From: Pseudomonas sp. FP1742
GTDB taxonomy: Bacteria > Pseudomonadota > Gammaproteobacteria > Pseudomonadales > Pseudomonadaceae
Direction: 5' to 3'
DNA length: 64,000 nt
Assembly: GCF_030687145.1 (NCBI RefSeq)
Contig: NZ_CP117460.1
Coordinates: 5,146,001 to 5,210,000, forward strand
Position numbers and translations under genes: made by a program. The notes under the pieces were generated by a model. It saw only the letters and a list, made by a program, of their open reading frames with translations, did no database searches and was not told where the DNA came from. Positions 910 through 55,193 of the stretch are shown here, piece after piece. Position 1 is the first letter of the stretch, and every line of letters starts with the position of its first letter.

Positions 910-1160
910 TTTTCGCCTGAACGACTTACCTGGCCTCTTCTCTGAATGGGCGGTCGACCTCCGCCGCCCGATGGCAACAGCTAACCGCTGGCTCGCTCTG
1001 CAAATTAAGAAGAGGTACTGGCAAGACATTAATTCTCCTGCCACCAGTCAACAATCACCCAAAAACTTTCCCCCTTCCCGCGACCGTTCATCAGAAAGAC
1101 GCTCAACCTGTCAAATATGATAGTAGCCGGACTTCCGATACGATTTGTTTAATAAGACTT

Positions 1161-1180
1161 GTGAACACATTCGTGTTCAC
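1161..1180. promoter_or_regulatory. perfect 8-bp inverted repeat upstream of the orphan gene at 1211
   Basis: GTGAACAC, a 4-base spacer and GTGTTCAC form a perfect dyad 30 bp before the start codon at 1211. It is followed by TGTTTTTAT, so it could be an operator, or a weak terminator for transcription arriving from upstream. The rest of the 301-bp stretch 910-1210 shows no convincing gene: the only open frame (896-1120) has no ribosome site and no recognisable content. Confidence 0.4.
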
Positions 1181-1210
1181 TGTTTTTATCACGTTGAACA
1201 GGAGTTCATC

Positions 1211-1591
1211 ATGAAGACGAATCAATTTGTCGGTAAATGCAGTGGTAAGTCTCAATACAACGGTAATCCGGTAGGTACAGAATTCTTCACAGAAGAGATT
1301 CAATTTGCCATGAACTTCTACGCCGCTCAGAAGGGGCAAGATTTCGTTCAAATCTTCTATGGCCAAAGCCTCGAAGCGGGCGATCATGAGCTGAAGGTAG
1401 GACCAGAGGAAGAGGCGAAACTAGAGTACAAAGTTGGAAATATAATTCACCGTCCACAAGGGACGGTGAAGGTAATGGTGAGTAGCGATCTGGATAAACA
1501 AGTTGGAACATTCGACGCCTCCTACCTTGACGGTATTGGTCGTCCCATCCTCTTCAAAGGAGAATTTGAAGGTCAGTATTTCCTCAAATAA
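1211..1591 (+). CDS. uncharacterised 126-residue protein
   Basis: I do not recognise this protein. The frame is open from 1145, but ATG at 1211 is preceded by CAGGAG at a good distance and is taken as the start. The product is acidic, lacks a signal peptide and membrane segments, and reads as a compact, probably beta-rich domain (alternating hydrophobics in DFVQIFYGQ, GTVKVMVSS and GRPILFKGEF). The gene is visibly richer in A and T than its neighbours and stands alone between an upstream dyad (1161-1180) and a strong downstream hairpin (1612-1640). That isolation and base composition suggest acquisition by transfer. No function is proposed. Confidence 0.7.
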   Translation: MKTNQFVGKCSGKSQYNGNPVGTEFFTEEIQFAMNFYAAQKGQDFVQIFYGQSLEAGDHELKVGPEEEAKLEYKVGNIIHRPQGTVKVMVSSDLDKQVGTFDASYLDGIGRPILFKGEFEGQYFLK

Positions 1592-1727: not shown

Positions 1728-1814
1728 AATGTTTAATGGATGTGTCTGAACGCAGACCTTTCCCACGCATCTTTCAAGTTGTCCGTCGGAAGCGGGCTCT
1801 CTAGTCTTTGGCTG

Positions 1815-2050
1815 TCGCTGAAAACTCAGCGATCGGGTGTGAGAACCCGGTAGCCCTGTTAATCCAACATCAGTACCACCATAATTGCCGCCAGCTTACC
1901 GCTGCGTGCAATGCTCTATGGCGGCTGTGTGCGGGCGGACTTCGGTCCGGCCGGGTTTGGGGTACGACCGGTTTCTCACTCCGCACATAGCTGCCACCCC
2001 TTCATCGCGTGAGAAACGATAAGTGGTGGCTCCAATTGATTTGGTACCCC
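1815..2050 (+). promoter_or_regulatory. candidate structured RNA leader of the DUF6124 gene (copy 1)
   Basis: A set of helices precedes the gene at 2053. Hairpin A is TCGCTGA/TCAGCGA (1815-1821 with 1826-1832, loop AAAC). Helix B pairs GTGAGAACCCGGT (1839-1851) with ACCGGTTTCTCAC (1967-1979), with one mismatch. GCCGCCA (1887-1893) pairs with TGGCGGC (1919-1925). A UUCG tetraloop hairpin has GG-CGGAC (1934-1940) opposite GTCCG-g-CC (1945-1952), with a bulged G. GTGAGAAAC recurs at 2009-2017 and can pair perfectly with GTTTCTCAC at 1971-1979, which competes with helix B. AGCTGCCACCCCTTC (1989-2003) is almost identical in the second copy on the minus strand at 38889-39105, where stems change but pairing is kept. 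It is not a family I can name. Confidence 0.6.
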
Positions 2051-2052
2051 TA

Positions 2053-2424
2053 ATGAATAAAAAAATCGTTCCCGATCCTCCCTTCAATACCACCACCCCC
2101 AACGCCGAAGCCTCGCGCGCCGAAGAATTACTCAAAGACCGCGAAGCCATCAAACGCGCCCTCGACTACTACCTCGATCCCCCGGCGCCCTACACCGAAA
2201 AACCTCGTCGCCCCAGCACCATGTTCATGGTCGCCCCGAATATGGATACCGAAAGCCTCCTGGCCCACGCCTGTGAATCGTTGGCCACAGCGAGTGTCCT
2301 GGCCAGCGACTTCGCCAACGACCTGACCGGCCCGCAGCGCTACACGGCGCTGGCGATTCAACAGAGCATCATGCTGGCGGAACTGGCGGTTAACCGGGCG
2401 CTGGATAACGTCGACCCGGCATAG
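2053..2424 (+). CDS. DUF6124 family protein (copy 1)
   Basis: This 123-residue protein belongs to the small DUF6124 (formerly DUF3077-like) family common in the Pseudomonas fluorescens group; its function is unknown. Family features seen are a proline-rich, disordered N-terminus, the helix AEELLKDREAIKRALDYYLD, then FMVAPNMDTESLLAHACESL and a C-terminal helix ending AELAVNRALDNV. ATG at 2053 is preferred over GTG at 2023 because it gives the family N-terminus (M-N-K-K-I-V-P-D-P-P). No good ribosome site precedes it, which fits translation being set by the structured leader (1815-2050). A paralogue lies at 38526-38888. It looks soluble, with no signal peptide. Confidence 0.8.
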   Translation: MNKKIVPDPPFNTTTPNAEASRAEELLKDREAIKRALDYYLDPPAPYTEKPRRPSTMFMVAPNMDTESLLAHACESLATASVLASDFANDLTGPQRYTALAIQQSIMLAELAVNRALDNVDPA

Positions 2425-38403: not shown

Positions 38404-38461
38404 CAGGCTCGCTCCCACAGGGCAATACACATCCCTGTGGGAGCGGGCTTGCCCGCGAAGG
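38404..38461. repeat. short, partly decayed REPIN
   Basis: AGGCTCGCTCCCACAGGG and CCCTGTGGGAGCGGGCTTG are inverse partners with under 15 bp between; the left arm lacks the inner half. Confidence 0.7.
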
Positions 38462-38525: not shown

Positions 38526-38888
38526 TTACTCAGTCGGCACCACCTTATCCAGCACCTGATTCACAGCCAGTTCAGCCAACATCACCACCTGCGCGATACC
38601 CAGCAGGGTTTTGCGGTGGGTGCCTTCCAGCAAGGCCGCGAAGTCGTTGAGCATGACGGTGGCCGAGCCCAGGGTTTCGCTGGCGTTGACCAGCATCGGC
38701 TCGGTGGCGGCCGCCGGGTTGGCCAGGTACAGCTTGTTGGGTTGGTAGGGTGTGGCCATGACCGTGGCCGCCGGGTTGAGGTAATGGTCGAGGGCGCGCT
38801 CGGCGGCTTCGTTGAGTTTTCTGGAATCGGGGGATTCGTAGGGGGAGACCGGATCGGTGACCGGTGGGTTAGGCGTAGGCTTTATCAT
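38526..38888 (-). CDS. DUF6124 family protein (copy 2)
   Basis: The 120-residue protein has the classic DUF6124 layout: a proline-rich N-terminus MIKPTPNPPVTDPVSPYES, the helix RKLNEAAERALDHYLNP, LYLANPAAATEPMLVNASETL, and the C-terminal helix GIAQVVMLAELAVNQVLDKV. It is a distant paralogue of the protein at 2053-2424 (shared AERALDHYL / IKRALDYYL, MLAELAVN). Function unknown; no signal peptide. ATG at 38888 lies just after a hairpin (38894-38916) and behind a leader with the same folded layout as copy 1. Confidence 0.85.
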   Translation of the reverse strand: MIKPTPNPPVTDPVSPYESPDSRKLNEAAERALDHYLNPAATVMATPYQPNKLYLANPAAATEPMLVNASETLGSATVMLNDFAALLEGTHRKTLLGIAQVVMLAELAVNQVLDKVVPTE

Positions 38889-39105
38889 TTTCAGGTTCCA
38901 AAATAATGCTGGAACCTCTTCTCTGCTAAAAGAAGGGGTGACAGCTGAACGCAGGTTAGCAGACCGGGGAACCTAAGGAAGCCGGCGCGCCGAAGCGCCC
39001 TGCGTACAGCCGCCATCAAATGCAGGCATGGAGCCTGACTGATAGTGCGCGTACGACCTTAGGTTAACCACGGGCTGCTAAACCCGATCACTGGGAATCA
39101 GTGAT
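38889..39105 (-). promoter_or_regulatory. candidate structured RNA leader of the DUF6124 gene (copy 2)
   Basis: Read on the minus strand: hairpin A is ATCACTG/CAGTGAT (39099-39105 with 39087-39093). The long helix B pairs GTTTAGCAG-CCCG-GG-AACCTAAGG (39083 to 39057) with CCTTAGGTT-CC-CGG-CTGCTAAC (38978 to 38955). The UUCG hairpin GG-GCGC/GCGC-g-CC (39000 to 38984) keeps the bulged G. AGCTGTCACCCCTTC (38945 to 38931) is conserved. TTAGCAGA recurs at 38929-38922 and can pair with TCTGCTAA at 38963-38956. A last hairpin GGTTCCA/TGGAACC (38894-38916) sits before ATG, with AGAAGAGG on its 5' side. The rest of the gap up to 39357 holds only the promoter side of the CoA transferase gene. Confidence 0.6.
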
Positions 39106-39357
39106 GCGAATCAAGTTACCGACCGGCCCCAAGGCGCACAAGCCGGCGGATTCTGGCGCAGGCGTAGGCAACGGCGCAAGGTTTCGTGGGCTTTAGGACG
39201 TAACACAGGGTGTCGTTAAACATTCATTCTGGATCGTGTGTATTGGCGCTCGGAAATCGATGAATACCCTGACAGATCGGTCTTGCTCCCACAGGATTTC
39301 ATCTGGCCGAGCCGTCTTTTTGAACTATGCTCGGGCTCTCGCTCCGGAGGGCCTTCG

Positions 39358-54644: not shown

Positions 54645-54933
54645 ACGATCGAAAACAATTGAACGACCCTATCGAATAAGCCTGCACTAGTGGCCACTCT
54701 AACTACCATCAACCCGAGGAAATCCGGGCCTTCGCGGGGCTTGTTTTTTCTGCCGTAGTTGGCGTAGAGTTTGTTCACTGTGTTTGCATGGGTCGCTTGG
54801 AATCGTGACCTGGGCAGTAGCCTACAAGTTAGCTACATCCCGTTCGACGTCTTCTTACTCTCCTGCAACCAGCCCCAGTACTCTTTCATGAGAAAGAGAC
54901 TGTCATTCATTTTTGCGTCAAAGGAAATAAGAA

Positions 54934-55146
54934 ATGTCCCAACGTCAGAGCGGTACCGTCAAGTGGTTTAACGACGAGAAAGGTTTTGGTTTTATCACTC
55001 CAGAGAGCGGTCCGGATCTGTTCGTACATTTCCGCGCTATTCAGGGCAGCGGCTTCAAGAGCCTGAAAGAAGGCCAGAAAGTGACTTTCGTTGCTGTGCA
55101 AGGCCAAAAAGGCATGCAGGCTGACGAAGTACAAGCAGAAGGCTAA
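54934..55146 (+). CDS. cold-shock domain protein (CspA family)
   Basis: The 70-residue protein is one five-stranded OB-fold that binds single-stranded RNA or DNA. RNP1 is KGFGFIT and RNP2 is DLFVHF, with the usual [14 protein letters not shown] start. AAAGGAAATAAG precedes ATG. A long AT-rich leader upstream is typical of csp mRNAs, whose translation depends on leader structure. A strong terminator follows at 55159-55193. Confidence 0.94.
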
Positions 55147-55158
55147 TCTTCTGTAACG

Positions 55159-55193
55159 AAAAAGCCCCTGATACTGATATCAGGGGCTTTTTT
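55159..55193 (+). terminator. rho-independent terminator of the cold-shock gene
   Basis: AAAAGCCCCTGATA, loop CTGA, TATCAGGGGCTTTTTT: a perfect 14-bp stem with a T run. Confidence 0.95.

What the first reader, a model, noticed from the sequence alone, without database searches (positions are those of the whole stretch)
1815..2050. A folded leader with conserved helices before a DUF6124 gene
The 5' region carries hairpin A (1815-1832), helix B (1839-1851 with 1967-1979), a GCCGCCA/TGGCGGC helix and a UUCG hairpin with a bulged G. A second leader at 38889-39105 keeps every one of hairpin A, helix B and the UUCG hairpin with different bases (TCGCTGA/TCAGCGA versus ATCACTG/CAGTGAT; GTGAGAA/TTCTCAC versus TTAGCAG/CTGCTAA; CGGAC/GTCCG versus GCGC/GCGC), while GATCGGGT, ATGGCGGCTGT and AGCTGYCACCCCTTC are kept as sequence. 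Compensatory change in three helices is hard to explain without selection on RNA structure. I cannot name a known RNA family that fits.
Basis: partly seen in the sequence, partly recalled or inferred. Interest (0 to 1): 0.85.

Follow-up and report, generated by a model that had tools for sequence, protein, structure and literature searches.

The report
Self-addressed C4 antisense-RNA gene cassettes
The folded leader is the known phage-P1-type C4 antisense RNA with its target sites, here part of a small cassette that seems to silence its own little gene; this Pseudomonas genome carries 34 C4 copies, most with matching target sites on both sides and many with different matching sequences.

Summary
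The helices are real, but the family is known. Rfam places C4 antisense RNA (RF01695) at 1914-2001 and its target leader c4-a1b1 (RF03163) at 1801-1853; C4 recurs at 38934-39020, minus strand. "Helix B" is an antisense contact: a 7-nt C4 segment matches a site upstream (a1) and a second, overlooked site downstream (a2); a C4 loop matches a site (b2) just before the DUF6124 start codon. Phage P1 is annotated with the same order.

Beyond the known family: the genome has 34 C4 copies, 22 before DUF6124 genes; 92 of 99 congeneric genomes have C4. In 30 of 34 units C4 matches its own two flanks at 13 or more of 14 positions, against 15 of 1084 pairs of units with different seeds. In 12 close paralogue pairs the loop differs at 66% of positions, the scaffold at 17%, yet own loop-target pairing beats swapped in 23 of 24. 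Neither window cassette was found at its site in relatives. Best reading: mobile, self-silenced gene cassettes with diverging RNA addresses; expression untested, DUF6124 function unknown.

The parts
1779..1807 (+). promoter-like TTGTCC-17-TAGTCT, 6 nt before hairpin A
   Evidence: in 20 of 34 units the best-scoring pair has this 17-nt form just before hairpin A; by plain consensus score the set is barely above shuffles (6.5 against 5.96)
1814..1833 (+). hairpin A, probable 5' end of the transcript (start site inferred)
   Evidence: 8/8 pairs; within Rfam c4-a1b1 1801-1853
1839..1845 (+). a1 target site GTGAGAA in a hairpin loop
1914..2001 (+). C4 antisense RNA (Rfam RF01695)
   Evidence: 72.6 bits, cut-off 45
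1959..1965 (+). C4 loop seed (b) GGGGTAC
   Evidence: exact 7-nt complement before the start codon
1973..1979 (+). C4 linker seed (a) TTCTCAC
   Evidence: exact complement upstream and downstream
2009..2015 (+). a2 target site GTGAGAA in a small hairpin loop
   Evidence: (9-nt match to 2017)
2044..2050 (+). b2 target site GTACCCC, 2 nt before the ATG
   Evidence: -14.5 kcal/mol
2053..2424 (+). DUF6124 gene (123 aa), the presumed regulated cargo
   Evidence: PF19619, 85.8 bits, cut-off 27
39113..39141 (-). promoter-like TTGTGC-17-TAACTT of unit 2
39087..39105 (-). hairpin A of unit 2
39075..39081 (-). a1 site of unit 2 (TTAGCAG)
39057..39065 (-). b1 site of unit 2 (9 nt complementary to the C4 loop)
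38934..39020 (-). C4 antisense RNA of unit 2; linker seed 38956-38962, loop seed 38968-38974
38922..38929 (-). a2 site of unit 2 (8-nt match)
38893..38899 (-). b2 site of unit 2 (GGAACCT), 4 nt before the ATG
   Evidence: -13.7 kcal/mol
38526..38888 (-). DUF6124 gene of unit 2 (120 aa)
   Evidence: PF19619, 65.7 bits

Best explanation
Each leader is a C4-type antisense module that silences the gene behind it. Transcription starts near hairpin A (inferred from promoter-like boxes) and yields one precursor in the order a1-b1, C4, a2-b2, gene (order shown by sequence; in unit 1 no clear b1). C4 is excised, probably by RNase P as in P1 (inferred). It pairs through its 7-nt linker with a2 and through its hairpin loop with b2 over the ribosome-binding region, blocking translation of DUF6124 (complementarity shown, repression inferred); pairing with a1-b1 may act on the nascent transcript (inferred). 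The genome holds 34 C4 copies, most as such cassettes. The loops diverge fast between near-identical copies while still fitting their own target, so a cassette tends to answer mainly to its own C4, though linker seeds are often shared. The cassettes differ in position between relatives and so are mobile or quickly turned over (absence at two sites shown, mechanism unknown).
For: Rfam hits over cut-off; 34 C4 (150 of 1918 candidates scored, so a lower bound) and 35 a1b1-like hits in the genome. Own against cross: linker exact match of 7 nt or more upstream in 30/34 and downstream in 30/34, against 7.0% and 6.0% of cross pairs; loop downstream 22/34 against 2.5%. Both flanks at 13 or more of 14: own 30/34, units with different linker 15 of 1084. 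17 distinct linker seeds pair at 119/119 and 118/119 positions, shuffles at most 91 (chosen as units with 13 or more of 14, so the level is partly by construction). Other species: 27 of 29 units have 7 nt or more on both sides; named-genome sample 77 of 81 reach 13/14. Order as in P1's annotation, with similar downstream spacing. a sites in hairpin loops in 32/34 upstream and 32/34 downstream. dN/dS 0.07-0.23 in 13 DUF6124 pairs and 0.09-0.15 in 2 pairs of another cargo. Loop divergence 91/137 against scaffold 140/842; own loop-target pairing stronger than swapped in 23 of 24.
Against: No expression, processing or repression data. Unit 1 has no clear Shine-Dalgarno before its ATG (read by eye) and no b1 match of 7 nt. 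Addresses are not fully private: the combined downstream match is best for the own target in 26 of 34 C4s, uniquely in 23; by duplex energy the loop ranks its own downstream site first in only 17 of 34; of 38 pairs of different units sharing a linker, 32 reach 13/14. The linker diverges no faster than the scaffold (14/84). The loop-upstream match reaches 7 nt in only 18/34. The upstream spacing is shorter than in P1. Units at 2114157 and 4181804 have no convincing gene behind C4. Four of 26 near-full DUF6124 domains have no C4.
Confidence: 0.85

Rival explanations
1. A cis-acting structured leader (riboswitch- or protein-binding type) in which helix B is an intramolecular regulatory helix.
For: The leader folds well as one molecule and helix B is in the minimum-energy fold.
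Against: The same C4 segment matches two separate sites, one on each side; both partners sit in hairpin loops; Rfam identity as C4.
Confidence: 0.06
2. A type I toxin-antitoxin unit: C4 is the RNA antitoxin and DUF6124 a growth-inhibiting protein, comparable to the P1 Icd protein in the same position.
For: Same position as P1 icd, annotated as inhibitor of cell division; cargo under purifying selection.
Against: Four near-full DUF6124 genes in this genome have no C4, two of them with a C4-less a1b1-like leader; no similarity to Icd; no PADLOC hit.
Confidence: 0.15
3. Decaying prophage debris without present function.
For: C4 is known from phages P1/P7; one C4 here precedes a Bro-N gene matching phage anti-repressor families; two C4s lack a convincing gene.
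Against: Purifying selection, intact address matching in 30/34, C4 in 92 of 99 congeneric genomes; the window's DUF6124 protein found a match in one phage record and no plasmid at E 0.001.
Confidence: 0.06
4. C4 copies mainly act in trans on other host transcripts or incoming phages, as suggested for the Acinetobacter baumannii C4 group; the flanking sites are secondary.
For: Proposed in PMC5320573; linker seeds are shared by several units, so some cross-action is likely.
Against: A matching target directly behind C4, at the start codon of its own gene, in most units makes the neighbour the prime target.
Confidence: 0.12

Closest known systems
C4 antisense RNA of phages P1 and P7 (RF01695) with a1b1/a2b2 targets (RF03163)
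   Same: RNA fold, order a1-b1-C4-a2-b2-gene, 7-nt a seed, similar downstream spacing (P1 from the end of C4: a2 +4, b2 +33, start codon +51; here medians about +8, +39, +55, n 32, 22 and 32, after my correction for the longer Rfam model). Some units also keep the 4-nt stop/start overlap of P1 icd/ant1.
   Different: On the chromosome, in tens of copies, cargo mostly DUF6124, DUF3077 and other small proteins instead of icd-ant; the a1-to-C4 spacing is shorter (a1 median -67 from the Rfam model start, P1 -88 from C4). P7 itself was not examined.
A. baumannii 'Group 1' C4-derived sRNAs (PMC5320573)
   Same: Many C4 copies (21) in one bacterial genome; there reported as highly expressed and apparently cut at the P1-like site (section 16, part 1 of section 20 and passages read).
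   Different: No own target or cargo gene is reported in what I read; here the flanking targets and cargo are evident in most units.
isrK RNA (RF01394)
   Same: The a1b1 part of the leader resembles it weakly.
   Different: 28 and 18.2 bits against a cut-off of 50: not a member.
Pseudomonas fluorescens intergenic repeat family R178 (PMC2718517, passages with Table 3 seen)
   Same: 101 bp, internal 11-bp inverted repeats, 18/28/9 copies in three strains: could be the same element.
   Different: Its sequence is in a supplement I could not read, so identity is untested.

Membership tests
C4 antisense RNA (RF01695) | covariance-model score over the curated cut-off | tested here: met
   72.6 and 69.2 bits against 45
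C4 antisense RNA (RF01695) | two antisense segments complementary to sites before and after C4 | tested here: met
   in unit 1 the loop has no 7-nt upstream match
C4 antisense RNA (RF01695) | downstream target lies at the ribosome-binding region of the next gene | tested here: met
   b2 at 2044-2050 before ATG 2053; 38893-38899 before ATG 38888
C4 antisense RNA (RF01695) | excision from a precursor by RNase P | not testable with these tools
   known for P1/P7 as told in PMC5320573; no RNA data here
C4 antisense RNA (RF01695) | represses the downstream gene | not testable with these tools
   needs a reporter
c4-a1b1 (RF03163), unit 1 | score over cut-off 46.7 | tested here: met
   54.6 bits
c4-a1b1 (RF03163), unit 2 | score over cut-off 46.7 | tested here: not met
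   26.5 bits; in the genome 14 of 35 matches are over it
P1 c4-icd-ant immunity operon | cargo is icd and antirepressor genes | tested here: not met
   cargo is DUF6124; Icd not similar
isrK (RF01394) | score over cut-off 50 | tested here: not met
   28 and 18.2 bits
type I toxin-antitoxin | cargo toxic when unsilenced | not testable with these tools
   four C4-less DUF6124 genes argue against strong toxicity

The most novel reading that the evidence does not exclude
Pseudomonas chromosomes carry a diversifying repertoire of mobile cassettes, each with its own antisense 'address'; selection drives new copies to change C4 loop and target together so that residents do not silence them, a chromosomal counterpart of phage heteroimmunity or plasmid incompatibility groups. 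The cargo is then expressed when a cassette enters a cell without a matching C4.
Probability: 0.35. Interest if true: 0.8.

Novelty: new variant of a known kind. Interest (0 to 1): 0.6.

Why it matters
It gives targets and a cargo to a many-copy chromosomal C4 family; such a family was reported before, with unknown targets, in Acinetobacter. It offers dozens of natural antisense/target pairs in one genome, many with different seeds, to study specificity and crosstalk, and shows matched changes of antisense and target within near-identical copies. It also marks DUF6124, DUF3077 and other small unknown proteins as likely RNA-silenced cargo, a handle on their function.

Tried and rejected
Cis-riboswitch reading: rejected because of the double partner of the linker. 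Structure of DUF6124: AlphaFold model from 58 sequences, mean pLDDT 74.7, pTM 0.46, one helix plus a confident helical hairpin; PDB fold search gave nothing with E under 0.001, so no function follows. DUF6124 against DUF3077 and against the third small family by profile comparison: probability about 1%, E 0.05 and 0.04, so relatedness is not shown. P1 Icd against DUF6124: no similarity. PADLOC: no hit for 6 proteins, two of them cut to 70 residues. PHROGs: no hit for both DUF6124 proteins; the DUF3077 protein matched a family of unknown function. A third complementarity (C4 3' arm against a GTGGCAG-like stretch downstream) exceeds shuffles (7 nt or more in 11/34 against 1.4%) but is hardly unit-specific (cross 19%), so it is left unexplained. 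Promoter consensus score is only slightly above shuffles (6.5 against 5.96); the argument there is the repeated form and place. A b1 site for unit 1 at 1873-1880 was considered by eye and dropped: the best predicted duplex lies elsewhere. Working notes said about 24 C4 units precede DUF6124; the count is 22. A note says nine two-ORF units from other species; one search shows eight.

Rows dropped before counts: of 29 units from other species L076 lacks the upstream match and L093 (a cut locus, wrong register) both, 83 C4 hits, 81 evaluated (2 too near a locus end), 4 of 34 units left out of the per-column count (L004, L020, L025, L029). One search scored at most 39 candidates per genome and at most 14, so high counts are lower bounds. 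In one search a few reading frames (such as L009, L011, L019) began at an upstream in-frame ATG.

Full report
Observation. The leader at 1814-2055 folds as described (z -5.1), and the second leader at 38889-39105 keeps the same elements with other bases. Rfam names it: C4 antisense RNA over cut-off in both places, c4-a1b1 over cut-off in the first and below it in the second (26.5 against 46.7 bits).

What it is. In unit 1 the C4 linker TTCTCAC (1973-1979) is the exact complement of GTGAGAA at 1839-1845 and again at 2009-2015; the C4 loop GGGGTAC (1959-1965) is the exact complement of GTACCCC (2044-2050), just before the ATG of a DUF6124 gene. Unit 2 shows the same with other letters and also a 9-nt b1 match. 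Phage P1's record annotates the same order: a1, b1, C4, a2, b2, icd; its sequence gives a 7-nt a seed and an 8-nt b seed. Downstream spacing is similar: a2 +4, b2 +33, start codon +51 after C4 in P1, here about +8, +39 and +55 after my correction of the medians for the 3 nt by which the Rfam model is longer and for the way of counting. Upstream spacing is shorter here (a1 median -67 from the model start, range -80 to -39; P1 -88). In P1, b1 as annotated is not an exact complement of C4 (it differs from b2 in one letter), so a poor b1, as in unit 1, is not unusual.

How many. The window's genome (6,669,235 bases) has 34 C4 matches over cut-off (150 of 1918 candidates scored), 35 a1b1-like matches of which 14 are over cut-off, and 30 DUF6124 matches of which 26 are near full-length. 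By position, 22 C4 units precede a DUF6124 gene; one precedes DUF3077, one a Bro-N protein, six small proteins that I grouped together (four of them, with two from other genomes, aligned at 26-87% identity to the first), two very short ORFs, and two nothing convincing. In 99 genomes of the genus, 92 have C4 at E 0.001 (91 over cut-off) and 78 DUF6124; counts correlate (Spearman 0.89), no genome has DUF6124 without C4, and 39 of 99 have at least 20 C4. In 293 genomes of the order 44 have C4; of the 38 outside the genus, 37 have 1-6 copies and one, of the same family, 13 (at most 14 candidates scored each). The 14 control genomes had none.

Pairing specificity. Without choosing registers, the longest exact match of linker to own upstream site reaches 7 nt in 30/34, to own downstream site in 30/34; of loop to own downstream site in 22/34 and upstream in 18/34; cross pairs 7.0, 6.0, 2.5 and 5.7%. 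With both linker sites together, 30/34 own and 15 of 1084 cross pairs with different linker reach 13 of 14; of 38 pairs of units sharing a linker 32 do. In other species 27 of 29 units have 7 nt or more on both sides, and in public named genomes found by a C4 pattern (78 of 80 listed stretches titled Pseudomonas) 77 of 81 evaluated units reach 13 of 14, while the loop reaches 7 nt downstream in 53 of 81. Addresses are not wholly private: the combined downstream match is best for the own target in 26 of 34 C4s, uniquely in 23. By duplex energy the loop prefers its own downstream site on average (-13.5 against -7.0 kcal/mol) but ranks it first in only 17 of 34, the upstream one in 12 of 34. Target a sites sit in hairpin loops in 32/34 upstream and 32/34 downstream.

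Address divergence. In 12 pairs of close paralogues (dS 0.14-0.29 where computed) the C4 loop differs at 91 of 137 positions, the linker at 14 of 84 and the scaffold at 140 of 842. Gaps count as differences. The pairs are not independent (six come from four units); in eight pairs without shared members the counts, added by me, are 60/95 and 100/562 (Fisher p about 1e-18; positions within a loop are not independent either). Own loop-target duplexes are stronger than swapped ones in 23 of 24 (mean -12.5 against -7.4 kcal/mol). Since synonymous sites moved far less, loop and target seem to change together under selection (inference); gene conversion that spares the loop is an alternative I did not exclude. 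The linker shows no such excess.

Cargo. dN/dS is 0.07-0.23 in 13 pairs of DUF6124 genes and 0.09-0.15 in two pairs of another cargo. Four near-full DUF6124 genes have no C4, two of them with a C4-less a1b1-like leader, which speaks against strong toxicity. Of 94 C4 matches put through (two own, nine from other species picked for a short ORF, 83 matches in named genomes) 34 show a short ORF before a second gene; in 33 the next start overlaps the stop by 4 nt, in one it lies 6 nt behind, and for one (L229) the chosen next ORF is doubtful. One second gene was scanned and is DUF3077; many others look alike by eye. P1 icd and ant1 overlap by the same 4 nt. What these proteins do stays unknown.

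Mobility. Many paralogous cassettes align from about -200 to about +490 around the C4 start, some to +600 or more, i.e. promoter to end of gene. At site 1, none of 31 relatives with the neighbouring gene (83-97% identical protein) has C4 or DUF6124 within 1.5 kb by a home-made C4 profile, which finds 34 of 34 own units, and tblastn; Rfam agrees for the 12 neighbour-gene loci given to it. In two of the relatives the two flanking genes are nearly adjacent. At site 2, 26 of 29 relatives have no C4 and three have a C4 at another spot without DUF6124. One relative has a REP-like inverted repeat there instead (the label REP is recalled). This shows gain or loss at these two sites; the other 32 were not tested.

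Prior knowledge. Weinberg et al. 2010 list C4 and c4-a1b1 for proteobacteria and phages (PMC2864571, passages seen). PMC5320573 (section 16, part 1 of section 20 and passages) reports 21 C4-like sRNAs in A. baumannii, expressed and apparently processed, targets unknown. PMC12197685 (passage) describes C4 in P1/P7. PMC9630843 mentions a DUF3077 gene (passage). My searches of the held library, 'C4 antisense RNA', DUF6124 (no paper), c4-a1b1, C4 RNA with antirepressor and Pseudomonas, C4 antisense with Pseudomonas, DUF3077, RF01695 and C4 RNAs with variants, listed no paper whose title or start of abstract describes C4-DUF6124 cassettes; most listed papers I did not open, and subscription journals are mostly not held. 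P1/P7 specificity by few seed changes is told in PMC5320573; Rho-dependent effects in P1 I only recall.

Verdict. Well supported as a member of the C4 family; the many-copy, self-addressed, diverging cassette set is the new part. Nothing here shows expression or repression.

Noticed in passing
window 38404-38451 and 39260-39295; 1668-1700 and 2515-2545: REP-like sequences lie beside both cassettes (those at site 1 partly by eye); at the second site a relative (L156) has a REP-like inverted repeat in place of the cassette. REP-linked movement is only a guess, the label recalled.
   Followed up: partly
G000:C1 876572-876972 minus, 878660-879077 minus, 614084 plus, 1629656 minus (L069, L065, L066): Leaders with an a1b1-like part (below cut-off) but no C4, in front of small open frames: possible release from C4 control.
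   Followed up: partly
L001, L071-L073, L083, L084, L086, L090, L096 and 25 of L181-L260: Two-ORF layout: short leader ORF, often ending GGAQ, its stop overlapping the next start by 4 nt in nearly all, like P1 icd/ant1.
   Followed up: partly
L006; by eye also L078, L079, L081, L082, L085: C4 in front of a Bro-N gene; L006's protein matches phage anti-repressor families (the others were not scanned, a piece of L078's was compared with phages).
   Followed up: partly
window 54788-55193: cspA thermoregulator RNA (RF01766) just over cut-off, 82.9 against 78 bits.
   Followed up: no
window 1145-1591: 148-aa ORF without Pfam match before cassette 1.
   Followed up: no
EU982300.1 (L099): The one phage record with a relative of the window's DUF6124 protein, at its end beside prtR repressor and holin genes.
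   Followed up: no
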